From: Solwaraspora sp. WMMA2056
GTDB lineage: Bacteria; Actinomycetota; Actinomycetes; Mycobacteriales; Micromonosporaceae
Direction: 5' to 3'
DNA length: 64,000 nt
Assembly (NCBI RefSeq): GCF_030345095.1
Contig: NZ_CP128360.1
Location: forward strand, 5,952,001-6,016,000
A program made the position numbers and the translations under genes. How positions within the stretch are numbered: the first letter of the stretch is position 1; every line of letters starts with the position of its first letter. Positions 34,516 through 50,464 of this stretch are shown here, piece after piece. A model generated the notes under the pieces. That model did no database searches. It was not told the origin of the DNA and saw only the letters and a list, made by a program, of their open reading frames with translations.

Positions 34516-35100
34516 TCAGCCGACCGGGTGCATCGCCACCAGCATGGCGAACCGGTGTCCGCCGGCGGAGCCCTCGCGAGTCGCGCTGGCCTCCTCGAAG
34601 CGGCGCATCAGACTCTGCAGCTCCTGGCGGAACTCGGCGATCCGGTGCTGCGGGATCTCGGCGACGCCCCGGCTGAGCACCATCCGCAGCGGGTCCGGCG
34701 CGTCGCTGCTGCCGGAGATCGTGCCGGCGGTGAGTCCGGCCTCGATCTCGTCCCGGGTCTGGTCGAGCAGCAGGGCGACGACCTCCTGGGCCGAGCCGGG
34801 TTCGTCACCGGAGCGGCGGTGGAAGGTGAGGTTGAGCTGGCCCGCGCCGTACTGCTTCTCGATGATGCCGTTGACCACCCGGGTATCCCGGATGTGCAGC
34901 AGCTGGTGCTGCTCCAGCTGGTTGAGGTGGTAGTAGATCTTCGTCGGCGGGACGCCGACGATCCCGGCAAGCTCCTTCGCCGTCCAGGTCCGCTCCGGCT
35001 CCGACATGGCCAGCTCCAGGACCCGCATCCGGATGGGGTCCGCCAGCGCCTTGAGCGTGGCCACGTCCTCGATCATCCGGCTGCCCATCAGCTCAGTCAC
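34516..35100 (-). CDS. ArsR-type winged-helix regulator of the peptide locus
   Basis: 194 residues from GTG at 35100, which follows GGAGG six bases upstream. The N-terminal wHTH (VATLKALADPIRMRVLELAM, then TWTAKELAGIVGVPPTKIYYHLNQLEQ) is the ArsR/YdfH-like type that reads DNA; residues 100-194 form an extra helical domain with no metal-binding cysteine motif. It is divergent from the 66-residue peptide gene, with a 147-base shared promoter region containing an inverted repeat and the 10-base element also found upstream of the thiopeptide precursors. Likely local regulator of both cassettes (inference). Confidence 0.8.
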   Translation of the reverse strand: MTELMGSRMIEDVATLKALADPIRMRVLELAMSEPERTWTAKELAGIVGVPPTKIYYHLNQLEQHQLLHIRDTRVVNGIIEKQYGAGQLNLTFHRRSGDEPGSAQEVVALLLDQTRDEIEAGLTAGTISGSSDAPDPLRMVLSRGVAEIPQHRIAEFRQELQSLMRRFEEASATREGSAGGHRFAMLVAMHPVG

Positions 35101-35113
35101 GGCAAACCTCCAT

Positions 35114-35135
35114 TCAACCGACGTTCCACGGTTGA
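35114..35135. promoter_or_regulatory. Inverted repeat, probable operator of the ArsR-type gene
   Basis: TCAACCG (35114-35120) and CGGTTGA (35129-35135) are exact complements separated by 8 bases. The site lies 14 bases upstream of the regulator start, a typical autoregulatory position. Confidence 0.55.
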
Positions 35136-35149
35136 TTCTAACCCGACGA

Positions 35150-35187
35150 TTGACTTCTGTCCTTCGCTCAGGATATTTTGAACGTCA
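35150..35187 (+). promoter_or_regulatory. Promoter and shared operator of the radical-SAM peptide gene
   Basis: TTGACT (35150-35155) and TATTTT (35174-35179) separated by 18 bases form a sigma-70-like promoter. TTGAACGTCA (35178-35187) overlaps the end of the -10 and the start-site region. The same ten bases occur at 50443-50452 in the thiopeptide promoter, so one regulator may bind both. Confidence 0.55.
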
Positions 35188-35247
35188 GTTGGATTTTAGC
35201 ACCGCCTCACCTTCGCGACTCCTCATCCCCCTCACCGGAGGTTTACT

Positions 35248-35448
35248 GTGCCCACCAACCCGTTCTTCGCCGTCATCGCCGCCGTCGCCCTCGCCACCCC
35301 CGCCGCCGCGGCCGCCGTCGACGCCCAGTCCACCGCCGAGGCGACCGCCGAGGCTGCCGCCGAGCAGAGCCTGATCGCCATCGAACTGCCGACCGGCGAC
35401 GACACCGGCGAGGTCGACAGCATCAACTTCGCCTGCGCCTTCAGCTGA
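35248..35448 (+). CDS. Candidate radical-SAM RiPP precursor peptide (66 aa)
   Basis: GTG at 35248 with GGAGG six bases upstream, so translation is well supported. The peptide starts MPTNPFFAVIAAVALATPAA (a hydrophobic helix lacking the basic residues of a signal peptide), then an Ala/Glu/Thr-rich stretch, then SLIAIELPTGDD, and ends VDSINFACAFS. The tail has two Phe, one Cys (residue 63) and a C-terminal Ser, which could be the modified core. It is followed by a strong hairpin, then the radical SAM enzyme, a typical precursor-enzyme arrangement. I cannot match it to a named family; it could be a new radical-SAM peptide class. Confidence 0.6.
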   Translation: MPTNPFFAVIAAVALATPAAAAAVDAQSTAEATAEAAAEQSLIAIELPTGDDTGEVDSINFACAFS

Positions 35449-35468
35449 ACCGAAGGACCCGCCCCCGC

Positions 35469-35502
35469 AGCGGACCCGGAGCCGCCCCGCTCCGGGTCCG
35501 CT
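35469..35502 (+). terminator. Hairpin between the peptide gene and the radical SAM gene
   Basis: Perfect 14-bp stem (AGCGGACCCGGAGC at 35469-35482, complement at 35489-35502), 6-base loop, 20 bases after the peptide stop. It would make the peptide mRNA more abundant than that of the enzyme, as is common in RiPP operons. Confidence 0.75.
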
Positions 35503-35574
35503 GGCGTTACGGCCCCAGCCCGCCCGCCGTCGCAGCCCGGCACGCCACCCGTCAAGACCTCCGAAAGGCCCGCC

Positions 35575-36933
35575 ATGGCCCTGCCCGACCTCGTGCCCAG
35601 CCGCTACCTCGTGTTCAGCCCGACCGTCTACCGGCACCCCGGCGGCCGGCACCTGCGCGCCGTGTTCCACACCGGACGGGCCCGTACCCTGCTGCTCGAC
35701 ACCGACACCGTGCGGACCCTGACCGACGGCGACCCGGCCGGCCTGCCCGCCGACGAACAGCAGCGGCTCGCCACGCTCGGCGTACTCGTGCCGGCCGGCA
35801 CCGACGAGGCCGCCGCCGTCATCGCCGCCGGTGAGCAGGAGGCCGCCACCACCCGGACCCGCCAGTTCGTGGTCATGCCGACCGCCTACTGCAACATGGG
35901 CTGCGGCTACTGCGGGCAGGAACACCGGCGGGACACCCCTGCTGCCCGACCCACCCGGCACCGCGAGACCATCGCCGCCCGCGTCGAACAGGCCATGGCC
36001 AGCGGCGACTACGACCGCGTCGTGGTGCGCTGGTTCGGCGGCGAACCCCTGATGGGGTACGCCGTGCTGCGCGCGTTGTCCGCCCGGTTCACCGCTGCCG
36101 CCGACCGGCACGGCGTCGCGTACTCGGCGCTGCTGGTCACCAACGGCGCCCTGCTCGACGCCCGCAAACTGCGGACCCTGCACCGCGACTGCCGGGTGGT
36201 GCAGATCGAGGTCACCATCGACGGCCCGGCCCCGGTGCACGAGGCGTCCCGACCCCTCAACAGCGGACAGGGCTCCTACGACCGGATCACCGCCGCGCTG
36301 CGCGGCGTCCTGACCGACCCGGACCTGGCCGGATTGCGGGTCACCGTCCGGACCAACGTCGGCACCCACAACGCCGACCAGGCGGACGCCTTCGCCGCCG
36401 CGATGCGCGACGCCGGGCTCGCCGACCCGCGCATCCGGTTCTACCCGGCGCCGGTGCATTCCTGGGGCAACGACGTCAGCGACGTACGGCTGCGCCAGCG
36501 GCACGCCGCCGACACCGAGGTGCGCTGGTACGCCGCCTACCTCGCCGCCGGACTGCACTGCCGGGTGCTGCCCAGCCAGCCGGTACGGGTGGTGTGCACC
36601 GCAACGTCGCGGCACAGCGAGGTCGTCGCCCCCGACGGGCATCTCTACTCCTGCACCGAACAGCCGCTGGTGCCCGGCTTCACCGGCGAACACCTGGGCA
36701 CCGTGGACGACGTACCGCTCGGGCAGCTGCGCCCGCGAGGGCGCTACGACGACTGGTACGCCGGTCTGCGCGCCGGTGAGACCGGCTGCCGGTCCTGCCC
36801 GATCCTGCCGGTCTGCGGCGGCGCCTGCCCGAAACTGTGGCGGGAGGACAAACCACCGTGCCCGCCGCTGAAGGAGAACCTGGCCGCCCGGATCGACCTG
36901 CAGGTGCGCTCATCCGGGCTGGTCCCCGCCTGA
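35575..36933 (+). CDS. Radical SAM/SPASM peptide-modifying enzyme
   Basis: 452 residues. Residues 1-95 look like a PqqD/RRE-type leader-binding domain. The radical SAM cluster motif CxxxCxxC is C106/C110/C113 in AYCNMGCGYCGQEHRR, and SAM-binding GGEP is at 155-158. The C-terminal SPASM domain has all seven expected cysteines (C341, C360, C405, C408, C414, C418, C429) in the order CX2CX5CX3C after two upstream ligands, so two auxiliary [4Fe-4S] clusters are likely. ATG at 35575 follows GAAAGG. SPASM enzymes install thioether, C-C or other links in ribosomal peptides; the 66-aa peptide upstream is the natural substrate candidate. Its last 24 bases overlap the convergent ArsR-2 gene. Confidence 0.88.
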   Translation: MALPDLVPSRYLVFSPTVYRHPGGRHLRAVFHTGRARTLLLDTDTVRTLTDGDPAGLPADEQQRLATLGVLVPAGTDEAAAVIAAGEQEAATTRTRQFVVMPTAYCNMGCGYCGQEHRRDTPAARPTRHRETIAARVEQAMASGDYDRVVVRWFGGEPLMGYAVLRALSARFTAAADRHGVAYSALLVTNGALLDARKLRTLHRDCRVVQIEVTIDGPAPVHEASRPLNSGQGSYDRITAALRGVLTDPDLAGLRVTVRTNVGTHNADQADAFAAAMRDAGLADPRIRFYPAPVHSWGNDVSDVRLRQRHAADTEVRWYAAYLAAGLHCRVLPSQPVRVVCTATSRHSEVVAPDGHLYSCTEQPLVPGFTGEHLGTVDDVPLGQLRPRGRYDDWYAGLRAGETGCRSCPILPVCGGACPKLWREDKPPCPPLKENLAARIDLQVRSSGLVPA

Positions 36934-37392
36934 CGTCGGCGGACACCCCTCGCCGGACACCGGCGGAAACTCCCAGCGCAGCGCCAACTGCGCGGTCTGG
37001 AAGCAGCGCTCCGCCCGACCGTGCCCGGTCCGCTGGCTGACCACCCGGACCATTCCCTCCTCGGTGAGCACCCGCAGGTGGTAGTGCATCAGGCTGAAGG
37101 TGATGCCCAGCCGGTGGGCGAGCTGGCGCGCCGAGTAGGACTGCTGCGGTTCGGCGGTCAGCACACCGAGCACCTGCAGCCGGATCGGGTCGGCCACCGC
37201 CCGCAACGCGCTCACCCCGTCCAGCACCCGTACGGCGGCGGTGGTCGCGGCCGACTCCCCGCACTGGTGCGCCACACCGGGGTGTCGTGGCACACTGGAG
37301 TCGGCCCCCGACGTTCCCTGACGGTCGGGGGCTTCGCCATTGCCCCACCGGTCGGGGGCTTCGCCATTGCCCCGTCGCGCGGTGGCGGTCAC
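36910..37392 (-). CDS. Second ArsR-type winged-helix regulator, coupled to the elimination/SagB gene
   Basis: 160 residues if the GTG at 37392 is used; this overlaps the stop of the upstream gene as GTGA (37389-37392). The winged helix is in the C-terminal two-thirds: VSALRAVADPIRLQVLGVL, ARQLAHRLGITFSLMHYHLRV. The first 55 residues are a repeat-containing, probably disordered extension (GNGEAPDRWGNGEAPDR). No metal-site cysteine pair is evident. It is the last gene of the thiopeptide operon, so it may report pathway expression and feed back. Its 3' end overlaps the convergent radical SAM gene by 24 bases. Confidence 0.75.
   Translation of the reverse strand: MTATARRGNGEAPDRWGNGEAPDRQGTSGADSSVPRHPGVAHQCGESAATTAAVRVLDGVSALRAVADPIRLQVLGVLTAEPQQSYSARQLAHRLGITFSLMHYHLRVLTEEGMVRVVSQRTGHGRAERCFQTAQLALRWEFPPVSGEGCPPTSGGDQPG
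37322..37373. repeat. Direct repeat of 25 bp inside the second ArsR gene
   Basis: An identical 25-base block occurs at 37322-37346 and 37349-37373 (27-bp period), encoding the repeated GNGEAPDR segment in the regulator's N-terminal extension. It is in frame, so unit number can change without a frameshift. Confidence 0.9.
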
Positions 37393-39191
37393 GCCGCACC
37401 CGCCGGGAAACGCCCCACCGGCAGCAGGTAGACCAGCACGTCGTCGATGCCGTCCAGGCCGAGCAGCTCGTGGGCGACGTCGTCGTAGAAACCGCCGAAC
37501 ATGCCGAGCGCCAGCCCGGACGCCGCCGCCACCATCGCCAGGGTTTGCGCCAGGTGACCGGCCTCGGCCACGGCGAACCGCAGCGCCCGCATGCCGTACC
37601 GGTCCCGCAGCTCGCCGACCTGCACGTAGAGCCCGAGCAGGGCCGGCACCTCGGCCAGGTCGATCCCGCCGACGTCGAGGGCGTCGGCGCCGAACCACAT
37701 CGACGACGCCGTCAGCTCCGGCACCGTCGGTGCCGGCCCGAGCCGCCACAGCTGCCGGTCGACGTCGTCGACGTGGTAGACCCCGGCGGCGACGCCGGCG
37801 ACGTCGCGCGCGATCAGCCGCATCCGCGCCACGTACGTACCGCCGGCGCTCGGGTACGGGCGGTGGGCGTAGTCGTAGCGGTCCCCGCTGGGCAGCGGCA
37901 CCTGGGCCCGATGGGTCACCCCGTGTGCGCTCCACACCAGAGCGCCCAGGTCGGCGGCGTCGACCGGGCCGGTCAGCCGCCCCCGACCGGAGACCCGCCG
38001 GCGCAGCACGTCTGCGAGTGCCACCCGCGGCGGGTCCCCGGCGGGCAGAGGAACCGGCCGACCGCCGAACCGGAACGGGGTCCCGCTCCGTTCCGTGGCG
38101 GATTCACGCGGCCTCTGCGTCTGCAACAGCCCCGGCAGGAACTTGCTTGCCTCCTGGTAGCGGCGGTCGGCCGCCGCCGCGCCGTCGGCGAAGAAGTCCA
38201 CCGGCCCGGCCGGGGCCAACGCCGTACCGGCCACCAGCCAGCACACCGAGCGCTCCTCGTCGGGCAGGATGCCCAGCCGGTTGAACAACATGTGCAGCTG
38301 GGAGCCCCACACCCAGCGCCACCGCTGGTCGGCCGGGCCGTCGGCGGCCGACCCTTCCAGTTCCCGGCGCGCCGACCGGACCACCTGTGCCCAGTACGCC
38401 GCCGGGGACCGGTCCGGTTTCCCGCCCGCCGGCGTGCCTTCCCCGCCCACCAGCGCGACTTCCCCGCCCACCAGCGCGACGGTGCGGTCCCAGCGGCTAC
38501 GCAACGCCCGCCCCTGGCTGGCGAGCACCCGCGCCGCCTGGCCCTGCACGGCGGCGGCCGGCAGCATCGCCACCTCGTTCTGCCACCGCCAACCGGCGGC
38601 GTGCCCGCGCAGCCAACGTGCCGCGCCCAACTCGTCGAGGCCCAGCGCGGCAGCGGTGGCGGTGGCCAGTTCGGCGGCCACGGACAGCCGGGCCGGGCCG
38701 GGCGGCACCGCGCCGACGATCCGGGCGGTGACCTGGCTGGACCGGCAGAAGACGTCCTCGGCGACGGGCACCGCCGGTGGGCCGCCGTACCGGGCGGTCT
38801 CCGGCTGGTAGGCGATCTCGCGGACCTCGCCGTGGGCGTGCCAGCCGGCGGCCGACCGGGCGGCATCGCCGCCGAGCCGCTGGTAGTAGCTGTCCCCGTC
38901 GAGCGCGAACACCTCGTACGGTGCCTGCGCGACCAGTGTCGACAGCTGCTCGCGCAGCCGTTCGCCGACGCCCGGCAACGGGTCCCGGATCCGGATCCGC
39001 AGGTGCGGACCGCCCTCCCAGTAGCGGATGTAGAACCAGTCGGCGATGCCGCCGTCGGCGCGCAGCCGGTCCAGCAGCGGTGCCACCGTCGCCGACAGGA
39101 AGGTGTCCAGGTCGGCCGGTGCCCAGTAGACGAAGCAGTGCAGTCCCACCCAGGTACGGCGGACGGTGGCGGTCATGGTCGCAGCGGTCAC
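37389..39191 (-). CDS. Thiopeptide elimination domain fused to SagB-type azoline dehydrogenase (LazF-like)
   Basis: 600 residues. Residues 1-260 form a LanB C-terminal (SpaB_C-like) domain (TWVGLHCFVYWAPADLDTFL, DWFYIRYWEGGPHLRIRIRD), the fold that removes glutamate from glutamylated Ser/Thr to give dehydroamino acids. The C-terminal half is a nitroreductase/SagB-type FMN dehydrogenase (GVTHRAQVPLPSGDRYDYAH, PSAGGTYVARMRLI, VAEAGHLAQTLAMVAAASGL) that oxidises azolines. This two-domain fusion is the architecture of LazF in lactazole biosynthesis. GTG at 39191 overlaps the upstream stop (GTGA). Being in the same operon as a second SagB protein is unusual. Confidence 0.85.
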   Translation of the reverse strand: MTAATMTATVRRTWVGLHCFVYWAPADLDTFLSATVAPLLDRLRADGGIADWFYIRYWEGGPHLRIRIRDPLPGVGERLREQLSTLVAQAPYEVFALDGDSYYQRLGGDAARSAAGWHAHGEVREIAYQPETARYGGPPAVPVAEDVFCRSSQVTARIVGAVPPGPARLSVAAELATATAAALGLDELGAARWLRGHAAGWRWQNEVAMLPAAAVQGQAARVLASQGRALRSRWDRTVALVGGEVALVGGEGTPAGGKPDRSPAAYWAQVVRSARRELEGSAADGPADQRWRWVWGSQLHMLFNRLGILPDEERSVCWLVAGTALAPAGPVDFFADGAAAADRRYQEASKFLPGLLQTQRPRESATERSGTPFRFGGRPVPLPAGDPPRVALADVLRRRVSGRGRLTGPVDAADLGALVWSAHGVTHRAQVPLPSGDRYDYAHRPYPSAGGTYVARMRLIARDVAGVAAGVYHVDDVDRQLWRLGPAPTVPELTASSMWFGADALDVGGIDLAEVPALLGLYVQVGELRDRYGMRALRFAVAEAGHLAQTLAMVAAASGLALGMFGGFYDDVAHELLGLDGIDDVLVYLLPVGRFPAGAA

Positions 39192-40441
39192 AGCGGCACC
39201 TCCGGGTCGCTCAGGTCGTAGGCGAAGTCACGCACCCGCGACCGGCCGATCAGCAACAGGTAGATCAGGTCGTGCCCGGCGGGCAACGCGGCGGCGGCCT
39301 CGGCGGCGGCTTCACGGACCGCGCGGACCGGGCGGCAGAACAGCCCCGCCTCGGCGGCGGCGGTGCCGACGTGCTGGGCCAGGGCGCCGGCGGTGTGCAG
39401 CAGCCGCCGGTAGCCGACCGGGCCGTCGGCCCGGACCACCGCGCCGACGTCCGCGCTGACCAGCCAGGCCGCCGGCATGCCGGCGACGTCGACCTCGGTA
39501 CGCGAATAGGTGTACGCCTGCTGCACCTGCCCGATCGCGTCCCCCGGCCGGGTCGGCACGACCGGTGTCGACGCCGTCGATGTGGCTGCTCCGGCAGCGG
39601 ATCCCGCCGCTGCCGGGTACGCCGGGGCCGGCAGGTCGTACCAGCCGGCGGGCCGGTCGGTGACGTTGCCGACGGCGACGGTGTGCCGCAGGCCCGGCCA
39701 GGCGGCCGGGGATCCGGTCGGCGGCCGGTACGCGGCGGCGACCAGCCGGTCGAACACCGCCGCCGGCAGCGGCCTCGGGTCCGGGCTGAGCCCGCGCGGG
39801 CTCAGCCCGGAGCTGCGTACCGCCGGAGGACGGTGCCGCGACCCGGTGGCGGCGCTGGTCGGTCCGAGCTCGACGGTCAGCTGCCGGCCCTGCGTCCGTA
39901 CGGCGGCCCGCAGCCCGTGCCCGGCGGCCGCCTCGACCAGTGCCCCGGCGACGTGCCCGGCTTCCAACGCGGCCAACGCGTCGGCGAGCCGGCCGTAGCC
40001 GGCCGGCAACCGGCCGGGGCGTTCCCACAGCACCAACCCGGTCGGCGCGGCCAGCGACATCGGCCCAGCCGACCCGACCGGCACCGCCGCCGGCACCGAA
40101 CCGGGCCGCACCGGGTGCAGCCGCCCCCGTACCGGGTCGACCAGCCAGTCGGCGTCACCGCAGCGCACCGCCACGTCGACCAGGTACGCCGCCCGTGGCG
40201 ACGGGTACGCACGGTGCTCGTTGAACCCGTTCCACGGCTCGTAGCGGCGCGGCGCCAACGCGCTGGTCAACACCTTGACCAGCCGGTCGCCGACCGCGCC
40301 GGTGGCGGCCAGCGCGGTCAGTGCGACGCCGCCGGGTGCGGCCGGGGCACGGTACGGCGGCGCCGGGCCGGGCCGGACGTCCTTGCCGGGTCCGTGCGCG
40401 TAGACGTCGGCGAGCACTTCGACGAGCTGACGGGACGACAT
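39188..40441 (-). CDS. Stand-alone SagB-type dehydrogenase
   Basis: 417 residues. Nitroreductase/SagB family by its NxxRxYPSPRAAY-like segment (FNEHRAYPSPRAAYLVDVAV, residues about 85-105), the central LAALEAGHVAGALVEAAAGHG and the C-terminal QQAYTYSRTEVDV and RLLHTAGALAQHVGTAAAEAG. Would oxidise thiazolines/oxazolines to thiazoles/oxazoles using FMN, or reduce dehydroamino acids. ATG at 40441 has GAGG that overlaps the YcaO stop. Lactazole-type clusters need only the fused dehydrogenase, so a second one suggests an added oxidation or reduction step, or a replaced function. Confidence 0.8.
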   Translation of the reverse strand: MSSRQLVEVLADVYAHGPGKDVRPGPAPPYRAPAAPGGVALTALAATGAVGDRLVKVLTSALAPRRYEPWNGFNEHRAYPSPRAAYLVDVAVRCGDADWLVDPVRGRLHPVRPGSVPAAVPVGSAGPMSLAAPTGLVLWERPGRLPAGYGRLADALAALEAGHVAGALVEAAAGHGLRAAVRTQGRQLTVELGPTSAATGSRHRPPAVRSSGLSPRGLSPDPRPLPAAVFDRLVAAAYRPPTGSPAAWPGLRHTVAVGNVTDRPAGWYDLPAPAYPAAAGSAAGAATSTASTPVVPTRPGDAIGQVQQAYTYSRTEVDVAGMPAAWLVSADVGAVVRADGPVGYRRLLHTAGALAQHVGTAAAEAGLFCRPVRAVREAAAEAAAALPAGHDLIYLLLIGRSRVRDFAYDLSDPEVPL

Positions 40442-40448
40442 GGCGACC

Positions 40449-42377
40449 TCACGGGAACGGGTGCGGGTACAGGGGCAGGTCGGCGTAGCGCAGCGGGGCC
40501 GGCAGCCGGCCCAGCTCGGCCGGGACCCGCAGCAGCCGGTCCAGACCACGGGTGCGGTGGTGCACGTGGCCGAACGTCATCGGCAACGTGCCGGGGACGA
40601 TCACCTTCGCCGAGTGCAGCCCCAGCCGGTCGCGGGTCGACGGATCGGTCTGGTCGACCACGATCGTCTCCAGGCCGCGCGCGGCCCACCGGTCGACGGT
40701 CTCGCCGAGCAGCGCCGCCAGGTCGGTGACCGGGGCCGGGCGGCCCGGCCACACGTCCCGCCAGTGCGCCGGCGCCTCGCCGGTGAGCAGGAACTCGTAC
40801 CGTTGCCGGGCCTGCGGCAGGGTGTTCACCGCGACGTGCTCCTCCAGGCCGGTGACCAGCCGGGGATCGTCGAACATCGCCTGCAGCCGGTCCGGGTCGA
40901 GGTGGCCGGGCTTGTTGCGGGCCACCTCCGGCAGGCTGAACACGTCGACCACCGCCTCGGCGGCCGCCGAGCGCAGCGCCGCCCGGGGGTCCGGGTGGGC
41001 ACCGGCGGCGAAGAACGCCTGCGGCGCGCCGCCGGTCGGGTCGCGGTGCAGCACCAGGGCCAGCACCGTCGGCACCTCGAGATCGTTGGTAGCGTCGAAG
41101 AACAGCAGGTCGTAGCCGATCGTGTCGAGCCGGTCGACCAGGTGCGGCAGCACCGGGTCGTCGTCGGGGACGGCGACCGGGCGCAGCGGGGTCCGCGCGT
41201 ACCAGGCCATCAGGAACGCGTCGCGTTCGGCGACCTCGTACATGCCGTACAGGGCCGCCTCGACGGCGCTGTTGCCCAGGCCGCAGCCGTTGGAGCTTTC
41301 GTAGAGGAACCGGGCTCCGGCGCCGCGGTGCAGTCCCCAGTAGGCGACGTGCTCCGGCACCAGTACGGGGCGGCGGCGGCCCATCGACCACCCGTACACC
41401 CAGCGGGTCCGGGTCTGCGGGGTGTAGGGCACCATCCGGAACGCCGGGTGGTCGTGATGCGCGGGGTCGTGCAGCCCGAGCCGGGCCGGGTCGACCGCCC
41501 GGTCCGGGCCGAGGTCGGCGAAGGCCGCTTCGACGGCGGTACGCCGCCGGTACGGCCGCATCCCGGTGGCCCGTTCGACGGCTTCGAACAGGGCGACCCG
41601 CTCGGATTCGGCGAAGCTGCGGGCCCGGCCGTAGCCGGCTTCCCGGACCGGGGTGTCGCTGGCCAGTTCGCTGGTGCTCAACGCCATCGGTGACCGCTCG
41701 GTGCGGATCATGTGGGCGACGGGCCCGTGCCGCCAGTCGAACAGTTCGGCGCGCAACGCCTCCCGGGTGGTGCGCGGGTTGTCGCCGCGCAGCGAGTACG
41801 GGTCACCGGTCGGCGTGGCGGTGAGGGCCACCTCGGCACCGTCCGGGGTGTCCAGCGGCACCGGCCGGCAGACCCGGCAGCCCTGCCGGCGGGGCCGGAC
41901 CCGGTGGCTGCTGACGGTGGCGTGGTCGGTGCGGACCGCCACCACGGTCGCGTCGAACCGGGCCGGGTCGGTGAGCGCGTCGGCGACGGTGCCGGCCACC
42001 ACCGGCAGCAGGCTCGGCGGGACGGTGCCGCCGAGGCGCAGCCCCGGGTCGCGGCGGGGCACCCCCGGTCCGAACACCCGTAGCCGGGCCGCCTCGGCGC
42101 AGGCCAGGCAGACGCTCGCGGTCGGGCGCAGCACCGGGCCGACCAGCACCAGACCGCCGTCGAGGCGGACCGGTACGACGGTCGCGGCGTGCCGCCAGGC
42201 CTGGTCGCTCAGCTGCGCGGCCAGGGCCGGGGTCCAGTCGTCGAGCAGGACGACCATGGTCGCGCCGGCGTCGATGTCGCAGGCCGTGGCCGCGTCGCGC
42301 ACGGGCACCGGGTGACCGGCGAGGCGCAGGGCGTCCGCGAGCGCGGTGGCCGGGGTGGCAACGGTACGGGTCGACAT
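40449..42377 (-). CDS. YcaO cyclodehydratase for azoline formation (LazE-like)
   Basis: 642 residues. N-terminal TOMM leader/zinc module with four Zn ligands: C90-x2-C93 (VCLACAEAARL) and C167-x2-C170 (GCRVCRPV). The YcaO kinase-like domain follows (YGRARSFAESERVALFEAVE, SSNGCGLGNSAVEAALYGMYEVAERDAFLMAWY) and the essential C-terminal Pro-rich end is LPLYPHPFP. Phosphorylates the backbone amide of Cys residues and closes azolines on the precursor with help from the E1/leader-binding partner encoded just upstream. ATG at 42377, 3 bases after the partner stop. Confidence 0.9.
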   Translation of the reverse strand: MSTRTVATPATALADALRLAGHPVPVRDAATACDIDAGATMVVLLDDWTPALAAQLSDQAWRHAATVVPVRLDGGLVLVGPVLRPTASVCLACAEAARLRVFGPGVPRRDPGLRLGGTVPPSLLPVVAGTVADALTDPARFDATVVAVRTDHATVSSHRVRPRRQGCRVCRPVPLDTPDGAEVALTATPTGDPYSLRGDNPRTTREALRAELFDWRHGPVAHMIRTERSPMALSTSELASDTPVREAGYGRARSFAESERVALFEAVERATGMRPYRRRTAVEAAFADLGPDRAVDPARLGLHDPAHHDHPAFRMVPYTPQTRTRWVYGWSMGRRRPVLVPEHVAYWGLHRGAGARFLYESSNGCGLGNSAVEAALYGMYEVAERDAFLMAWYARTPLRPVAVPDDDPVLPHLVDRLDTIGYDLLFFDATNDLEVPTVLALVLHRDPTGGAPQAFFAAGAHPDPRAALRSAAAEAVVDVFSLPEVARNKPGHLDPDRLQAMFDDPRLVTGLEEHVAVNTLPQARQRYEFLLTGEAPAHWRDVWPGRPAPVTDLAALLGETVDRWAARGLETIVVDQTDPSTRDRLGLHSAKVIVPGTLPMTFGHVHHRTRGLDRLLRVPAELGRLPAPLRYADLPLYPHPFP

Positions 42378-44219: not shown

Positions 44220-45403
44220 CGCGTCACCTCCGGTGCGGTCGCGGCCAGCCGGGTCAAGTAGCCGTTGATCCGTTCCTGCCAGGTGATCCCGGTGATCCGC
44301 TCCGCCGCCCGGCTGAGCAGGTAGGCGGCCAGATAGCGTTCGGTCGGGCGCACGTCCAGCAGGCCGAGCAGCAGGTAGAGCACGTTGGTGGCGAACCGGT
44401 AGGTGACAAACTCCCGCTCGTACGGGACCCGGTCGAAGTCGATCTGCCGCAGCAGCTGGTGGTAATCGCTGTACTCGGTCCGGTCCGGATGCCAGCGGCG
44501 TACCGTGTCCGGGTCCCCGATCTGCTCGGCCCGGTCCAGGTAGCTGAACGCCGGCACCCGGGGCAGTTCGCCACGCTGGTACGCGGCCCCGGTCACCTCG
44601 GCGGCGGACACCGTCCACTGTTCCCACCCGCGCTCGGTCGGGTCCAGGCCCGGACCCGACTCCGCACCCGGGCCTGCCGCGTCCGTCGGGGCGGCCAGCC
44701 GGGCGACCAGGGCGGTCGCCGAGTCGGCGCAGCGCCGCCACTGGGCGTCGAACGCCGCCCGTACCCGGCCGTCCGGGTCGTTGAGCACCAGGAACTCCTC
44801 CAGGTGCGACAGGAACGACTGGTGGCCGTTGCCGAGCCCGAGCGGGTAGCGGCTGGCGTGCAGCGCCATCGCGGTCAGGCAGGTCCGCACCCGGGCGGCG
44901 GCACTGTCACCGGCAGCGGCCAGCCGGTCGGCGGCGGCGCTGACCGCCGGCACCCCCAGGCGCAGCAGCGCGGCCCGGCACTCGACCGCCTCGGTGGAGC
45001 CGAACAGGGTCGCCAACGCGCGGTCGTCGACCGGCTCGACGCGGACGGTGTTATCCGGGTGGATCGGCGCGTACGGCGGCGGCACCAGCTCGATCCGGCC
45101 GGCCTGTTCGGCCTGGGCGAGCAGCTCGGCGACGCTGGTCCGCGCGGTGCTGGGCTGCTCGGCCAGGTGGCGGCGCAGCCGGCCGGCGACCGCGGTCGCG
45201 ACCACGGCCAGCTCCGCCGCGCCGGCCGGGTCGGTGGCGGCCAGCCTGATCCGCAGGTGCGGTCCGTGCCGCCAGTGCCGTTCCAGGTGTACGGCGAGCC
45301 CCTGCCCGGCGGCCCAGCCGGCGGCCGGGAGCACCGCCGCGCGCAGCAGCGGCAGCTTGGTCGGCGAATGGTAGTAGGTGACGATGTCGAGGGCGTCAGT
45401 CAT
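44216..45403 (-). CDS. Thiopeptide-type LanB C-terminal domain protein, expected pyridine synthase (LazC-like)
   Basis: 395 residues, a stand-alone SpaB_C-like domain (IVTYYHSPTKLPLLRAAVLP, ERHWRHGPHLRIRLAATDP, FLSHLEEFLVLN, DYHQLLRQIDFDRVPYEREF). In thiopeptide pathways one such protein performs the formal [4+2] cycloaddition between two dehydroalanines that forms the central pyridine and releases the leader. The cluster also has this domain fused in the 37389-39191 protein, which would do the glutamate elimination. ATG at 45403 lies inside the last codons of the upstream gene (8-base overlap). Confidence 0.8.
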   Translation of the reverse strand: MTDALDIVTYYHSPTKLPLLRAAVLPAAGWAAGQGLAVHLERHWRHGPHLRIRLAATDPAGAAELAVVATAVAGRLRRHLAEQPSTARTSVAELLAQAEQAGRIELVPPPYAPIHPDNTVRVEPVDDRALATLFGSTEAVECRAALLRLGVPAVSAAADRLAAAGDSAAARVRTCLTAMALHASRYPLGLGNGHQSFLSHLEEFLVLNDPDGRVRAAFDAQWRRCADSATALVARLAAPTDAAGPGAESGPGLDPTERGWEQWTVSAAEVTGAAYQRGELPRVPAFSYLDRAEQIGDPDTVRRWHPDRTEYSDYHQLLRQIDFDRVPYEREFVTYRFATNVLYLLLGLLDVRPTERYLAAYLLSRAAERITGITWQERINGYLTRLAATAPEVTR

Positions 45404-48071
45404 GGCCGCCCCACCCCTTCCGGTAGGTCTCGGCGACCAGCTCGACGACCCGCCCCTGCGGGTTGCCGACGCCGGGCACCGGCAGGGCCTCCTCGAACCG
45501 CACCGGTCCGTCGTGGCGGGCCAGCAGCCGGGGCAGGTTCCGCAGGTGCAGCGCGTTGTCGAGGTCGACGTACTGCGGTTTGGGCAGCGACAGGTAGCGC
45601 TGGTAGTCGTCCGGGCCGCCGCGCACGTCCACTCCGGCGGCGGCGACGAACACCTCGGCGGGCAGGCCGAGCCGGGCCCGCCAGGTGCTGACCGCGTCGA
45701 ACGGCACGTCGCCGTCGGTCTCCAGGTCGGCCCGTAGCCGCTGCGCGGCGTCGGTGGGCAGCGTCCAGGAGCGCCGGCTGAGCACCAGGTCGTGGTAGCG
45801 CAGCCGGGTCCGGTGCCGGGCACCGGCCACCTCGCCGGTCGGCGCGAGCAGGCCCGGTCCGACCAGGCCGCTGCTGAGGTCGAAGTGCAGCGGTACGGTC
45901 CGGTCCGGCATCACGAACGGGACGAGGAACCCGAGGTAGAGCACGTCCAGGTCGGCGCCGGTGTCGTCGCGGACCAGCCGTACCTGGTCGGTCACCGGGT
46001 CGTGGCGCAGCCCGACCCGGTCGGCGAGCAGGTCGGCCCAGCGGCCGTCCTCGCCCACCTCGTGGTCGACCAGCAGCGGGTGCAGGTTGGCGTTGAACCC
46101 GGTGACCGGGCGGAACTGCGCCACCTGGGCGCGCGGGCCGAGGGTCGCCCGGATCTGCGCCGCCACCTGCGCCTTCGCCTGGGGTGCCAGCAGGTCGAGG
46201 AACCGGCTGGTGAACCGGCCCCAACCGGCGTACACGTGGTTGAGCACCAGCAGGTCGGCCCGCGCGGTGCGGGCCGGCTGGACGAAGTAGGCGTACGAGG
46301 CGGGTCGGGCGGTGACCCAGGCGGGCAGCGCCGCCGCCGCGTCGCGGACGAGGCCGTCCGGCAGGGTGAACTCGGCCGCGTCGGTCGGAGCCGCCGCCCG
46401 CAGCCGGGCCAGCAGGCCGGCCCGGGCCTCGGCCAGTTCCCGCAGCTGCGGGGTGACCAGGTCGGCGAACTCCGCCGCCGGGCTGATCGCCCCGGAGGGG
46501 GTGACCAGGTTGTACGCCCGCCACACCTGGCTCATCTCGGTGGAGAAGTCGGCGGCGCGCGGGCACCGCCCGCCGACGCCGTACCGGGCGACGAAGCGGT
46601 CCCGGACCAGCAGGCGCAGCGGCAGGTACTGGTCGAACAGCTCGACCAGCCCGGCCAGCGCGGGCAGCGCGTCGGCGGCGGCCCGGCCGTGGGACCGGCC
46701 CAGCCGCAGCGGTGTCCGCACCGCCACGTCCTCGGCCAGCACCGGTGCGTCGAACCAGGACAGTCCGACCGCCTGGTACGCGTTGCGCCAGGCGTCGCGC
46801 AGCGACGCCAGCGCGGCGGCCCGCTCGCCGGCCGTGACGGTGCCGAACCGTTCGGTCCGGGCGTCGATGTCGGCGAGCAGCGCGGCCAGGTCGGACCGGT
46901 CGTGCCGGCCGAGCCAGTCGGCGATGTGCCGCAGCGCCTGCGGGTCCTGCGGGTCGACGGGTTCGACGGCCAGCAGCAGCCCGGCGTCGAGGACCTGTCC
47001 GACGTAGCGGGTCGCGGCGGCGGCGGTACGCTGCGGGCCGCCGGGCAGTCGCCGGGCCAGCTCGGCGACCAGGTCACCGGGGGTGACCCCGGCCGGGCCG
47101 GCGGCCCGGGTCCGGTCGATCAGCAGCCGCAGCGGTCCGGTGCAGGCCAGCGAGACCTCTTCCTCCAGCACCGAGATGATCCGGTCGACGCCCTGCACCG
47201 GGCGGTCCCGGCGGAACGTCAGCTGGTCACCGGTGACGGTGATCGCGGCGGCCAGCCGGTGCGGCACGGTGTCGCGCAGGGCCGGTTCGGCCAGTACCGC
47301 GGCGAGCAGCCGGGCCAGCAGGGTCCGGTTGGCCCGGGCGACGGCCACCGGCTGCCCGCCGGCCAAGGCCGCGTCGTCGGCAGGTACGGCACCGCCGGCC
47401 GATTCTGCCGCCCCGGTCCAGTTGCCCCAGGCGACGTAGGTGAACCAGGACAGCGGGCTGGTCTTCGCGGTGGCCCGCAGCGCGTACCGCAGCGCGTTGG
47501 GTTCGGACTTGCGGGCCCGGCTGTCCGGGTGGGCCCCGCCGGCGGCGGCCCGGTCGATCCCGCGCAGCAGGTCGGCACCGGTGAGGGTGACCGCGCGGCG
47601 CAGTGGTTCGGCGGCGCAGACCTCGGCGAGCGCGGACCGTTCCGCGCCGAGCGCGCCGGTGGCCAGCTCACCGAGTTCGGCGCGCACCTGCGCGGCCTCG
47701 CGCATGACGGCCAGCCAGGCCGGCAGGTCGGGCACCCGGTCGAGCAGGCCGCCGAGTTGCGCGACCCGGTCCTGCCGGGGCAGCCGTTCGTTGTGCACGT
47801 CGCGGCGCAGCGGCAGCACCGCCTTGCGGTGGAAGTCGGCCGGGTGTCCGTCGGCGCTGGCGTAGAGCGCGTCGGCGAGCCGGGGGGCCAGCTCGGTGAT
47901 CCGCGACCGCAGTTCGACCAGCCGGCGCAGCGCGGCACGGAACTCGCGGGCACCGTCCGGAGTCGGCGGGTACGGCAGCGCGGCCAGCCGGACCAGCGCG
48001 TACGGCGCCAGCGTGGTGTCGATCGCCGACCGCCGGTCGGCGGTGGCCGGGACGACGGCGATTCCGGTCAT
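45396..48071 (-). CDS. LanB-type tRNA-dependent glutamylation enzyme (LazB-like)
   Basis: 891 residues, a lantibiotic dehydratase N-terminal domain alone. Visible landmarks: RHPADFHRKAVLPLRRDVHNERLP-type region, KTSPLSWFTYVAWGNW, LTPQLRELAEARAGLL and the late GARHRTRLRYHDLVLSRRSW segment. The enzyme transfers glutamate from Glu-tRNA to Ser/Thr of the precursor so that elimination can follow. Separate glutamylation and elimination proteins are the thiopeptide pattern. ATG at 48071 overlaps the permease stop (ATGA). A tRNA-Glu gene lies at 31837, close but transcribed on its own. Confidence 0.88.
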   Translation of the reverse strand: MTGIAVVPATADRRSAIDTTLAPYALVRLAALPYPPTPDGAREFRAALRRLVELRSRITELAPRLADALYASADGHPADFHRKAVLPLRRDVHNERLPRQDRVAQLGGLLDRVPDLPAWLAVMREAAQVRAELGELATGALGAERSALAEVCAAEPLRRAVTLTGADLLRGIDRAAAGGAHPDSRARKSEPNALRYALRATAKTSPLSWFTYVAWGNWTGAAESAGGAVPADDAALAGGQPVAVARANRTLLARLLAAVLAEPALRDTVPHRLAAAITVTGDQLTFRRDRPVQGVDRIISVLEEEVSLACTGPLRLLIDRTRAAGPAGVTPGDLVAELARRLPGGPQRTAAAATRYVGQVLDAGLLLAVEPVDPQDPQALRHIADWLGRHDRSDLAALLADIDARTERFGTVTAGERAAALASLRDAWRNAYQAVGLSWFDAPVLAEDVAVRTPLRLGRSHGRAAADALPALAGLVELFDQYLPLRLLVRDRFVARYGVGGRCPRAADFSTEMSQVWRAYNLVTPSGAISPAAEFADLVTPQLRELAEARAGLLARLRAAAPTDAAEFTLPDGLVRDAAAALPAWVTARPASYAYFVQPARTARADLLVLNHVYAGWGRFTSRFLDLLAPQAKAQVAAQIRATLGPRAQVAQFRPVTGFNANLHPLLVDHEVGEDGRWADLLADRVGLRHDPVTDQVRLVRDDTGADLDVLYLGFLVPFVMPDRTVPLHFDLSSGLVGPGLLAPTGEVAGARHRTRLRYHDLVLSRRSWTLPTDAAQRLRADLETDGDVPFDAVSTWRARLGLPAEVFVAAAGVDVRGGPDDYQRYLSLPKPQYVDLDNALHLRNLPRLLARHDGPVRFEEALPVPGVGNPQGRVVELVAETYRKGWGGHD

Positions 48072-48823
48072 CCGTACCGCACCCCCTCGTCGCGCCGGAA
48101 CGCGGCGCGGGCGAGCAGGGCGAACAGCGCCGTCCAGCCCAGCAGCAGGAAGGCGATCCAGCTGGGTCCGATCAGGTGGTCGGCCCGGTCGATCAGCGCC
48201 AGCACGAAGTACTGGTACTGGTAGGTGGGCACGTACGGGACCACGGCGTGCAGCGCCGACGGCAGGTAGTCGATCGGCACGAACAGGCCGCCGAAGAAGG
48301 CCAGCAGCATGAACAGCAGGTTCGCCAGCATCATCGCCGGCTGCGGGGCGAGACGGTAGCCGATCGCCATGCCGAGCAGGCCGAACGGGATCGCGCCGAC
48401 GACGACCGCGCCGAGCCAGACCGGCCAGGCCGCCAGGGGCAGCCGCAGGTCGGTGGTGACGGCGGCGACGATCAGCAGCGGAATCCAGCTGATCACGTTG
48501 AAGCCGAGCACGTAGACCAGCCGGCCGGCGAACCGGGTCAGCGGTGACAGCGGCAGCAGCCGGAGCCGCTGCTCCCACGGGTTCTCCCGGTCTGCGGCGA
48601 CGCCGGCGGCCAGCGAGGCGACGGTGACGTTGAGGGTGGTGTAGAGCAGGAACGGGGTGATGGCGTACTCGCTGCCCAGGCCGAGACCGGCGTAGCGGTT
48701 GGCGTTGACCAGCCCGAACAGTAGGAAGAAGACCAGTGGGAAGCCCAGCGCGGGTGCCCAGTAGGCGGGCATCCGCAGCGTGTCGAGGGCGTGCGCCCGG
48801 GCGTGCAGCAGGACGTAGCGCAT
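48068..48823 (-). CDS. ABC-2 type transporter permease of the thiopeptide operon
   Basis: 251 residues from ATG at 48823. Six hydrophobic helices typical of ABC-2 permeases, for example APALGFPLVFFLLFGLV, FLLYTTLNVTVASLAAGV, VWLGAVVVGAIPFGLLGMAI and ANLLFMLLAFFGGLFVPI; an exterior loop precedes the last helix. Works with the adjacent ATPase to export the mature peptide and/or give self-protection. One base separates it from the ATPase stop; its own stop overlaps the LanB gene. Confidence 0.88.
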   Translation of the reverse strand: MRYVLLHARAHALDTLRMPAYWAPALGFPLVFFLLFGLVNANRYAGLGLGSEYAITPFLLYTTLNVTVASLAAGVAADRENPWEQRLRLLPLSPLTRFAGRLVYVLGFNVISWIPLLIVAAVTTDLRLPLAAWPVWLGAVVVGAIPFGLLGMAIGYRLAPQPAMMLANLLFMLLAFFGGLFVPIDYLPSALHAVVPYVPTYQYQYFVLALIDRADHLIGPSWIAFLLLGWTALFALLARAAFRRDEGVRYG

Positions 48824-48824
48824 G

Positions 48825-49754
48825 TCAGGCCACCTTCTCGGCAACGCGGATCCCGGACCGGGTGACGGCACCCGGGTCGGTGGACCGGCTGATCGTGCGG
48901 ATCGCTTCCTCCAGGCCGACCCGCTCGACCCGGATGCCGGTGAACGGCACCTCGGCGCGGACCAGTGCCCGGACGGTGGCGTCCGGGTCGGCGGTGTAGA
49001 TGTGGGTCCGGTTGCCGACGGTGGTCACCCGGTCGGCCGGGCCGGAGACAGCGATCGGCGGCAGCGGGCCGGCCACCTCGACGTCGACCAGGTGCAGCCC
49101 GACCTCGGCGACGACGTCGTCGACCGCACCGGTGCGGGCGATCTGCCCGCCGGCGACGACCACGACCCGCGTGGCGAGGTGTTCGGCCTCGGCCATGTCG
49201 TGGGTGGTGAGCAGCACGGCGCTGCCGCCGGCGGCGACGGCGGCGATCGCCGACCACAGTCCGTCGCGGCTGTCGGCGTCCAGGCCGGTGGTCGGTTCGT
49301 CGAGGAAGAGCAGGTCGGGGCGGCCGACGAGGGCGGTCGCCAGGGCGACCCGGCGGCGCTGACCGCCGGAGAGGGTGCCGCACCGCTTGCCCAGGAACGG
49401 GCCGAGTCCGAGCTGGTCGACCAGCTCCGCGCGGGGCACCGGGTGCGGGTAGTGGGCGGCGACGAGGGCAAGGGTCTCGGCGACGGTGAGCCGCCAGGGC
49501 AGCGCGGTCCGCTGCGGGGTCAGCCCCAGTCGGGCCTTGACCGGTACGTCGGCGGGGCTCGCGCCGAGCACCTCGACCCGGCCCGACGTGGGGCGGCGCA
49601 GGCCGGCCAGGATTTCGATCATTGTCGACTTGCCGGCACCGTTGGGCCCGAGCACGGCGGTGACCCCGGCCGGCACCACGACGGAGACGGCGTCGAGTGC
49701 GACCACGGCGCCGTACGTCTTGGTGACGGTGTCGAGACGGGCGAAGACTTCCAC
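48825..49754 (-). CDS. ABC transporter ATP-binding protein of the thiopeptide operon
   Basis: 309 residues. Walker A LGPNGAGKSTMIEILAGL, signature LSGGQRRRVALATAL, Walker B LLFLDEPTTGLDAD and switch His in LLTTHDMAEAEHLA. DrrA-like antibiotic-exporter type with a C-terminal domain of about 90 residues. GTG at 49754 has AAGGAG five bases upstream; the GTG at 49760 is too close to that ribosome binding site. First gene after the precursor hairpin terminator, so translation of the enzyme genes begins here. Confidence 0.93.
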   Translation of the reverse strand: MEVFARLDTVTKTYGAVVALDAVSVVVPAGVTAVLGPNGAGKSTMIEILAGLRRPTSGRVEVLGASPADVPVKARLGLTPQRTALPWRLTVAETLALVAAHYPHPVPRAELVDQLGLGPFLGKRCGTLSGGQRRRVALATALVGRPDLLFLDEPTTGLDADSRDGLWSAIAAVAAGGSAVLLTTHDMAEAEHLATRVVVVAGGQIARTGAVDDVVAEVGLHLVDVEVAGPLPPIAVSGPADRVTTVGNRTHIYTADPDATVRALVRAEVPFTGIRVERVGLEEAIRTISRSTDPGAVTRSGIRVAEKVA

Positions 49755-49776
49755 GAGCACTCCTTCGGATACGACG

Positions 49777-49807
49777 CGCGGAGGGGGCGCGGTGCGCCCC
49801 CTCCGCG
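49777..49807 (-). terminator. Attenuator-like hairpin between precursor genes and enzyme genes
   Basis: Perfect 14-bp stem (CGCGGAGGGGGCGC at 49777-49790, complement at 49794-49807) with a 3-base loop, 84 bases after the precursor-1 stop and 22 bases before the ATPase start. No U tract. It would limit read-through so that the precursor transcript exceeds the enzyme transcript. Confidence 0.8.
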
Positions 49808-49891
49808 TGACTGGCGTGACTCGCCCGGACCCGGGCTACCGGCAATCCCTGACACTGCCGGTGGCGCCCCGGTGGTGGGCGGGTGACTGGG

Positions 49892-50080
49892 TCAGTTCGC
49901 CTGCAGTTCGGCGTCGGCGCACGACGAGCAGCAGGAGCTGGCGCCGCAGCAGGAGCTGGAGCTGCAGCTCGACGAGCCGGAGGAGGCGCCGGTCTCCGGC
50001 AGAGCGGCCGAGTCGCGGATCGAGCTGACGGACAGTTCGTCGAGCTCGAGGTCTTCGACGTCGATGATGTCGTCGGACAT
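49892..50080 (-). CDS. Thiopeptide-type precursor 1 (Ser/Cys-rich core)
   Basis: 62 residues from ATG at 50080 (AAGG nine bases upstream; a GTG at 50089 is in frame). The acidic leader runs DVEDLELDELSVSSIRDSAA, then LPETGA, with the same Asp/Glu-Leu-rich spacing and S-[ILM]-RD[ST] motif as LazA. The expected core begins at Ser33 and has 13 Ser and 6 Cys among its 30 residues (Cys 39, 44, 45, 50, 51, 54) with two Cys-Cys pairs; the tail ADAELQAN is free of Ser and Cys. The run SSSS followed by CC is unlike published thiopeptide cores that I know. Cleavage site is inferred from the LazA-like LPE(T/N)GAS motif. Confidence 0.85.
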   Translation of the reverse strand: MSDDIIDVEDLELDELSVSSIRDSAALPETGASSGSSSCSSSSCCGASSCCSSCADAELQAN

Positions 50081-50161
50081 GTGATTCACCTTTCGGTTGG
50101 GGTTCGCCCCGCAGGGTCGCGGGGTCGTCGGGTGGCCGGCGTCGACGGGACGCCGCGCCGG

Positions 50162-50350
50162 TCAGGTGACGTAGCAGCAGGAGCAGGAGGCTCGGCCACC
50201 GTCGCCGGCCGAGGACGCTCCGGTCTCGGGCAGTGCCACCGAGTCCCGCATCGCGGTGACGGTCAGTGGCCCGAGGTCCAGTCCGTCCACGTCGATGTCC
50301 AGGTCGTAGTCCTGGGTGGAATCCCAGGTCGTCGACAGTTCCGCCAACAT
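50162..50350 (-). CDS. Thiopeptide-type precursor 2
   Basis: 62 residues from ATG at 50350; GGAGG ends six bases upstream. The leader shares LTVTAMRDSVALPETGAS with precursor 1 and with the remembered LazA leader. The expected core, SSAGDGGRASCSCCYVT, has three Cys and an Asp and an Arg inside the would-be ring, unusual in a thiopeptide. It is the first gene after the promoter at 50436-50464. Pyridine closure could use Ser1 with Ser10 or Ser12. Shares with precursor 1 the leader but not the core, so the operon probably makes two products. Confidence 0.85.
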   Translation of the reverse strand: MLAELSTTWDSTQDYDLDIDVDGLDLGPLTVTAMRDSVALPETGASSAGDGGRASCSCCYVT

Positions 50351-50408
50351 CGCGCACCTCCTTGTCGGCCCGGGAAGCCGTTCGCTGGGCCGCTCCTTGA
50401 CTTCCACC

Positions 50409-50464
50409 TGACGTTCTAGCTTCTTGCTGCGCTTGAGAATAGTTGAACGTCAAGGTTCGGTCAA
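50409..50464 (-). promoter_or_regulatory. Promoter of the thiopeptide operon with shared operator
   Basis: On the minus strand TTGACC (50464-50459) and TATTCT (50441-50436) are 17 bases apart, a near-ideal sigma-70-like promoter. The spacer contains TTGAACGTCA (50443-50452 as read on the plus strand), which is also present at 35178-35187, and an inverted partner TGACGTTC lies at 50409-50416. A repressor bound there would block RNA polymerase directly. Confidence 0.65.

What the first reader, a model, noticed from the sequence alone, without database searches (positions are those of the whole stretch)
34516..50464. Lactazole-type thiopeptide locus with two precursors and a second, radical-SAM peptide cassette
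Seen: a nearly gap-free operon of two LazA-like peptides, ABC exporter, LanB N-domain, LanB C-domain protein, E1 partner, YcaO, SagB, elimination-SagB fusion and an ArsR-type regulator. Convergent to it lies a peptide-hairpin-radical SAM/SPASM unit. Known: the lactazole pathway uses one precursor and B-F enzymes of these types. Inference: this is a lactazole relative with added parts (second precursor, extra dehydrogenase, radical SAM cassette, two ArsR-like regulators). I know of no described system with this combination.
Basis: partly seen in the sequence, partly recalled or inferred. Interest (0 to 1): 0.95.

Follow-up and report, generated by a model that had tools for sequence, protein, structure and literature searches.

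The report
Thiopeptide operon wired to second peptide
One bacterial gene island holds a lactazole-type thiopeptide operon and a separate radical-SAM peptide cassette whose promoters carry near-identical palindromic DNA sites, so one repressor is predicted to switch on two different kinds of modified peptide together, which would offer a handle on lactazole-like thiopeptides, whose natural role is unknown.

Summary
The genes are as reported: a lactazole-type thiopeptide operon with two precursors (A1, A2), ABC exporter, LazB-LazF homologues, an extra nitroreductase-fold protein (SagB2) and ArsR2, convergent to a cassette ArsR1/peptide rP/radical SAM. The "added parts" differ in weight: two or more precursors occur in 34 of 72 LazB+LazC loci and SagB2 in 24 of 72, so both are ordinary. 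The cassette is unusual: it stands alone in Actinoplanes and Longispora, and is joined to this operon in nine genomes of three genera, inverted in Catellatospora. New here: a palindrome (CGYTYRA-N6-TYRARCG) overlaps the -10 of the A1 promoter and, with one mismatch, of the rP promoter. A matrix from A1 promoters alone ranks the ArsR1-rP intergenic first in 14 of 14 loci (column-shuffled: mean 1.7, maximum 7). ArsR1 likely represses both. A1 keeps the lactazole register with a cysteine-free interior, a natural "minimal lactazole". All 16 rP peptides end in [N/D]-x-[G/A]-C plus 3-5 residues, a predicted thioether site. Products, binding and signal are untested. New variant of a known kind; boldest reading: the radical-SAM peptide signals thiopeptide production.

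The parts
50162..50350 (-). A1, thiopeptide precursor; core SSAGDGGRASCSCCYVT
   Evidence: NF033400 31.9 bits (cut-off 30); same register in Catellatospora and Hamadaea and in 8 of 10 database relatives
49892..50080 (-). A2, second thiopeptide precursor; Ser/Cys-rich core SSGSSSCSSSSCCGASSCCSSC...
   Evidence: NF033400 40.2 bits; A2-type is the only precursor found in Micromonospora pisi
50430..50449 (-). operator-like palindrome CGTTCAACTATTCTCAAGCG over the -10 of the A1 promoter
   Evidence: only exact match to CGYTYRA-N6-TYRARCG in the 7.01 Mb genome
50436..50464 (-). A1 promoter TTGACC-N17-TATTCT
   Evidence: 4 matches in the region, two of them one promoter with two spacings; 0.1 expected
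48825..49760 (-). ABC transporter ATPase (DrrA-like)
   Evidence: below equivalog cut-offs
48068..48823 (-). ABC transporter permease (DrrB-like)
   Evidence: weak (28.2 bits)
45396..48071 (-). LazB homologue, glutamylating dehydratase domain
   Evidence: PF04738, 103 bits
44216..45403 (-). LazC homologue, predicted pyridine synthase
   Evidence: NF045556 169 bits (below its cut-off 325), PDB TbtD/PbtD, fold
42381..44219 (-). LazD homologue (partner of the YcaO protein)
   Evidence: tblastn and position; no family model hit
40449..42377 (-). LazE homologue, YcaO cyclodehydratase
   Evidence: PF02624 261.7 bits, TIGR03604 275.3 bits
39188..40441 (-). SagB2, diverged nitroreductase-fold protein
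   Evidence: PF00881 27.7 bits; fold nearest 3eo7, then BmdC and McbC; 24 of 72 laz-like loci
37389..39191 (-). LazF homologue, glutamate elimination domain fused to SagB-type dehydrogenase
   Evidence: PF14028 131.5 bits, TIGR03891 103.1 bits, TIGR03605 73.9 bits (cut-off 78.4)
36910..37392 (-). ArsR2, short winged-helix protein, last gene of the operon
   Evidence: PF12840 27.2 bits
35575..36933 (+). radical SAM/SPASM peptide maturase
   Evidence: PF04055 43.5 bits, TIGR04085 37.8 bits (cut-off 27), TIGR04463 176.7 bits (cut-off 525)
35468..35503 (+). 15-bp hairpin between rP and the radical SAM gene, possible attenuator
   Evidence: a stem at this place in 8 of 8 laz-linked spacers folded, with different letters
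35248..35448 (+). rP, predicted precursor of the radical SAM enzyme, ends INFACAFS
35165..35184 (-). operator-like palindrome CGTTCAAAATATCCTGAGCG (one mismatch) over the -10 of the rP promoter
35150..35179 (+). rP promoter TTGACT-N16/18-GATATT/TATTTT
35135..35163 (-). ArsR1 promoter AGGACA-N17-TAGAAT
34516..35100 (-). ArsR1, predicted repressor of both promoters
   Evidence: PF12840 38.9 bits; travels with the cassette in 7 of 7 stand-alone loci

Best explanation
This is a lactazole-type thiopeptide operon with two precursor genes, joined to a separate ArsR1 - small peptide (rP) - radical SAM cassette, and the promoters of the two units carry near-identical palindromic sites through which ArsR1 likely represses both. 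When an unknown signal releases ArsR1, both units would be transcribed. LazDE and LazF would make azoles, LazB and LazF dehydroalanines, and LazC would join residues 1 and 12 of A1 into a pyridine, giving a 32-membered lactazole-like ring whose interior has no cysteine, with a bithiazole-Tyr-Val-Thr tail; A2 is predicted to be processed by the same enzymes, in a register that I could not fix. In parallel the radical SAM enzyme would modify rP, most likely by a thioether from the conserved Cys near its C terminus to the Asn/Asp three residues before it. Shown: gene content, recurrence of the linkage, the palindromes and their places, the A1 register, the rP motif. Inferred: ArsR1 binding and repression, all chemistry, export and function.
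For: Enzymes and precursors. A1 register: Ser1, Ser10, residue 11, Ser12 and Cys13 are the residues needed by lactazole enzymes (PMC7210931); A1 has S1, S10, C11, S12, C13, while positions 2-8 vary between genera (SAGDGGR, WINTSGN, WVNTSGN) and ASCSCCYVT stays. Linkage: of 300 Micromonosporaceae genomes 10 have LazC at 55% identity or more and 9 have the radical SAM protein at 60% or more, all nine among the ten; linked on one contig in Solwaraspora, Hamadaea and Catellatospora, with the cassette inverted in both Catellatospora. Operator: matrix from nine A1 promoters ranks the ArsR1-rP intergenic first in 14 of 14 loci, seven of them without a thiopeptide operon; 300 column-shuffled matrices gave mean 1.7, maximum 7. 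The exact palindrome occurs once in the 7.01 Mb genome, at A1. A pattern drawn from the two sites hits A1 and rP in 6 of 6 genomes of the genus that carry them, and A1 and rP in Catellatospora (2) and Hamadaea (1). Sites overlap the -10 of both promoters and lie in opposite orientation to transcription, as fits a dimer site rather than a sigma element. The ArsR1 helix read TKIYYH[LI]N[QT]LE goes with good palindromes and KK[IL]YYHLGLLE (Actinoplanes) with poor ones.
Against: No binding, expression or product data. The pattern was drawn after seeing the sites; with one mismatch the palindrome is not enriched genome-wide (15 sites against 20 for the reversed control). The window has one further weak palindrome at 14654. 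In stand-alone cassettes only G040 (Longispora) of 7 has an exact pattern match at rP; in the five Actinoplanes-type loci the matrix hits are poor palindromes that include the -35 TTGAC, so part of the signal there may be promoter likeness. The 14 loci are not independent. In the radical SAM tree the laz-linked rows are not one clade (at least 4 changes), because rows of unknown context lie among them, so a single joining is not shown. ArsR2 is not excluded as a binder. The genus shares the island by descent, so within it co-occurrence is not independent evidence.
Confidence: 0.65

Rival explanations
1. Two independent peptide pathways are mere neighbours; the cassette inserted beside the operon once and was inherited, and the promoter likeness is coincidence or reflects a common sigma factor.
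For: The cassette stands alone in 7 genomes; within the genus the island is inherited together; both promoters are of the sigma-70 type.
Against: Linkage in three genera with inversion in Catellatospora; Solwaraspora flanking families c4, c5, c6 were not seen in the Catellatospora and Hamadaea stretches (crude gene calls); the motif has opposite orientation to the two transcripts, and column-shuffled matrices of the same composition do not find it.
Confidence: 0.17
2. The radical SAM enzyme tailors the thiopeptide A1 or A2, and rP is a regulatory or decoy peptide.
For: Micromonospora pisi has the operon without A1-type precursor, cassette and operator, so A1 and cassette go together in this small sample.
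Against: The radical SAM gene keeps its own adjacent peptide with a conserved Cys motif also in the 7 genomes without a thiopeptide operon.
Confidence: 0.08
3. ArsR2, not ArsR1, binds the palindromes, or the two compete.
For: ArsR2 is a second HTH_20 protein encoded at the end of the operon and was found in laz+cassette loci.
Against: Stand-alone loci have ArsR1 only and still carry the matrix hit; the DNA-contact helix of ArsR1 co-varies with site quality.
Confidence: 0.1

Closest known systems
Lactazole pathway (laz, Streptomyces lactacystinaeus; PMC7210931)
   Same: LazB-F type enzymes incl. the LazF fusion; precursor leader ...LPETGAS; A1 core in the lactazole register S1-S10-x11-S12-C13
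   Different: Two precursors, SagB2, ABC exporter, two ArsR-type proteins and a co-regulated radical SAM cassette; A1 interior lacks Cys and carries charged residues; Cys instead of Ser at position 11
Minimal lactazole scaffold LazA-min (engineered; PMC7210931, section 7)
   Same: Only S1, S10, residue 11, S12 and C13 needed; interior without azoles
   Different: A1 is natural, conserved in three genera, with an extra C14 and YVT tail
Other laz-like loci of Saccharothrix, Streptosporangium and Microtetraspora (loci L025-L039)
   Same: SagB2 and often several precursors
   Different: No cassette, no palindrome
Radical SAM/SPASM peptide maturases (TIGR04463 and relatives; ranthipeptide and sactipeptide enzymes)
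   Same: Radical SAM core with SPASM domain beside a small Cys-containing peptide
   Different: Far below the equivalog cut-offs; one conserved Cys with [N/D] three before it; hydrophobic N terminus in laz-linked rP

Membership tests
Lactazole-type thiopeptide cluster | thiazolylpeptide precursor | tested here: met
   A1 31.9 and A2 40.2 bits against NF033400, cut-off 30
Lactazole-type thiopeptide cluster | pyridine synthase (LazC) | tested here: met
   PDB profile search and fold search; the TbtD/PbtD equivalog cut-off itself is not reached (169 of 325 bits)
Lactazole-type thiopeptide cluster | LazF fusion of elimination and dehydrogenase domains | tested here: met
   PF14028 residues 21-321, PF00881 residues 397-594
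Lactazole-type thiopeptide cluster | LazB glutamylation domain and LazE YcaO protein | tested here: met
   PF04738, PF02624
Lactazole-type thiopeptide cluster | LazD leader-binding partner | tested here: inconclusive
   similar to and placed like LazD of other loci but no family model
Lactazole-type thiopeptide cluster | core register S1, S10, S/C11, S12, C13 | tested here: met
   A1 yes; A2 no: residue 12 is Cys, so its register is open
Lactazole-type thiopeptide cluster | pyridine-containing macrocyclic product | not testable with these tools
   needs mass spectrometry
TIGR04463 radical SAM maturase | score above the curated cut-off | tested here: not met
   176.7 of 525 bits
Radical SAM/SPASM peptide maturase (broad) | radical SAM core and SPASM domain beside a peptide gene | tested here: met
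   PF04055, TIGR04085 above cut-off; rP in 16 of 16 cassettes
Ranthipeptide or sactipeptide | thioether cross-link | not testable with these tools
   inferred from the conserved [N/D]-x-[G/A]-C motif only
Metal-sensing ArsR/SmtB | metalloregulator model and Cys ligands | tested here: not met
   NF033788 32.6 of 55 bits; ArsR1 has no Cys (sequence)

The most novel reading that the evidence does not exclude
A two-peptide circuit: the radical-SAM-modified, exported rP peptide is the signal (or its precursor the co-effector) that releases ArsR1 from both operators, so that one RiPP turns on production of another; the thiopeptide it controls is a natural minimal lactazole.
Probability: 0.2. Interest if true: 0.82.

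Novelty: new variant of a known kind. Interest (0 to 1): 0.6.

Why it matters
PMC7210931 (passages) states that lactazole-like clusters are close to half of predicted thiopeptides (251 of 508), that only laz is characterised, that lactazole A has no antibacterial activity and that its function is unknown. A conserved regulatory link to a second, chemically different peptide gives a testable handle on function and on how to wake such clusters: remove ArsR1. A1 also shows that the stripped-down scaffold built by engineers exists in nature, with charged residues in its ring.

Tried and rejected
Second precursor and extra dehydrogenase as novelties: rejected, common in laz-like loci. LanB-only or linear azole peptide reading: rejected by LazC fold and profile. 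Metal-sensing ArsR: not supported. SagB2 by PDB sequence search: no useful hit; against the wrong half of LazF by a mis-set reference: nothing, repeated with the right half: hhalign probability 80, E 1.4e-5. LazD by family models: nothing. Radical SAM tree to show a single joining: not shown. The spacer hairpin as an intrinsic terminator: not supported. Genome-wide enrichment of the palindrome with one mismatch: none. Papers: nine searches showed no report of this pairing, in an open-licence library only; one likely relevant survey (10.1021/jacs.8b03896) is not held, so earlier description cannot be excluded.
Full report
Place. The window lies in a complete 7.01 Mb genome. Six of the seven held genomes of the genus have LazC; G105 does not.

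The operon. Family searches and tblastn give the order A1, A2, ATPase, permease, LazB, LazC, LazD, LazE, SagB2, LazF, ArsR2. LazC is the deciding enzyme: a profile of 21 relatives finds TbtD and PbtD in the PDB (E 3.2e-25 and 2.3e-22), and the AlphaFold model (pLDDT 90.4) has 13 PDB matches at E <= 0.001, all TbtD, PbtD, the [4+2] aza-cyclase variants or TsrL; the lantibiotic dehydratase NisB follows at 3.2e-3. It stays below the curated TbtD/PbtD cut-off (169 of 325 bits). LazD has no family hit.

Are the extra parts special? Among 72 loci with LazB and LazC above 80 bits (of 76 in L022-L097; four fell below), a motif scan found two or more precursors in 34, one in 28, none in 10 (short contigs or misses of the scan); SagB2 above 85 bits in 24; the radical SAM protein in 7. 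SagB2 is a nitroreductase-fold protein (model pLDDT 79.2; nearest 3eo7, E 8.3e-13, then BmdC, McbC, ThcOx), distantly like the SagB half of LazF. So precursor number and SagB2 mark a known branch, not a new system.

A1. The lactazole study (PMC7210931; passages, section 7 part 1) shows that Ser1, Ser10, Ser11, Ser12 and Cys13 suffice, the pyridine being made from residues 1 and 12. A1 has S1, S10, C11, S12, C13 and C14. Positions 2-8 differ between genera, ASCSCCYVT does not. A database search gave 10 relatives (its 10 candidates); 8 of 10 share the register, P0249 is one residue shorter, P0250 differs. A1 thus looks like a natural minimal lactazole with Asp and Arg in the ring. A2 has Cys at position 12 and is not in this register.

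The cassette. In 300 Micromonosporaceae genomes the radical SAM protein has matches (E <= 1e-80) in 26: nine at 62-100% identity, seven at 54-58%, ten at 38-45%. The nine are all among the ten genomes with LazC at 55% or more; the tenth is Micromonospora pisi (G010). The other 17 have no LazC match at 1e-20. In the nine, cassette and laz genes share a contig (in Catellatospora coxensis the operon is split over two contigs). Both Catellatospora have the cassette inverted. Stand-alone cassettes (7 of 7 at 54-58%) keep ArsR1; 7 of 7 more distant stretches looked at (L133-L137, L141, L142) have none. The tree does not show the laz-linked rows as one clade, since rows of unknown context lie among them.

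rP. A peptide ending in [N/D]-x-[G/A]-C plus 3-5 residues precedes the radical SAM gene in 16 of 16 cassettes (15, G093). Laz-linked rP differ from stand-alone ones: a hydrophobic Ala-rich N terminus (best 15-residue mean 2.05-2.22 in 8 of 8 measured, against 0.78-1.63 in 7 of 7), a spacer of 87-147 nt instead of 2-20 nt, and a 10-15 bp stem behind rP in 8 of 8 folded. A signal peptide and an attenuator are my inferences; no signal peptide predictor was run, and the window's spacer as a whole folds no better than shuffles (z -1.19).

The shared site. TTGAACGTCA occurs exactly twice in the window: in the rP and the A1 promoter. A matrix from nine A1 promoters (weighted by genus) ranked the ArsR1-rP intergenic first in 13 of 14 loci, and second to A1 itself in the window; with A1 left out, 14 of 14, against a mean of 1.7 and a maximum of 7 in 300 column-shuffled matrices. 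These regions are AT-rich, which the shuffles allow for. The palindrome CGYTYRA-N6-TYRARCG is exact once in the genome, at A1; rP is one of 14 further sites with one mismatch, and the reversed control has 20, so the looser count is not enriched. With at most 2 mismatches and 11 or more A/T, sites lie only in laz+cassette or cassette loci; none of the other 68 loci of L022-L097 has one, while the window has one more weak site at 14654. A pattern drawn from both sites hit A1 and rP in all six cassette-bearing genomes of the genus, plus one site shared by G000, G034 and cassette-less G105; control 0 in 7 of 7. In Catellatospora and Hamadaea it hit A1 and rP in 3 of 3, with one, three and no other sites; in stand-alone genomes it hit rP in 1 of 7; in M. 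pisi it gave one site far from the operon. Only three promoters are predicted in the region, and the palindromes overlap the -10 of A1 and rP.

Which regulator. ArsR1 travels with the cassette; its presumed recognition helix (assigned by eye) reads TKIYYH[LI]N[QT]LE in the three laz-linked genera and Longispora, which have the better palindromes, and KK[IL]YYHLGLLE in Actinoplanes. It has no Cys and falls short of the metal-sensor model. Repression is inferred from the overlap with the -10.

Novelty. Nine searches of an open-licence library gave no report of this pairing; PMC10868606, PMC4603692 and PMC7470986 were seen as passages only; the main thiopeptide survey is not held. I rate it a new variant of a known kind.

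Noticed in passing
window 31836-31909 and 32050-32122: tRNA-Glu and tRNA-Gln genes lie about 2.5 kb beyond ArsR1; LazB-type dehydratases use Glu-tRNA, but this may be coincidence.
   Followed up: no
window 12001-18000: G+C drops to 58-65% in a genome stretch otherwise near 70-78%, which may mark foreign DNA.
   Followed up: no
L127:5863-5882: Longispora has a second, perfect palindrome CGTTCAAAATAATTTGAACG behind ArsR1 and upstream of a lipoprotein-like gene and an SDR-like gene (named by eye), possibly a further member of the regulon.
   Followed up: partly
L126, L128, L129, L130: Four Actinoplanes-type stand-alone cassettes lie beside the same four genes (XRE-like, GAF-like, subtilisin-like and cyclase-like by eye; clusters c9-c12).
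   Followed up: no
L025, L038, L041: Microtetraspora, Streptosporangium and a Pseudonocardiales bin carry two LazC- or LazD-bearing gene sets back to back, one beside an A2-like precursor.
   Followed up: no
window 50545-51444: A gene with no NCBIfam hit lies just upstream of the A1 promoter in all six genomes of the genus that carry the island.
   Followed up: no
L035: Saccharothrix obliqua has five lactazole-type precursors in one locus.
   Followed up: no
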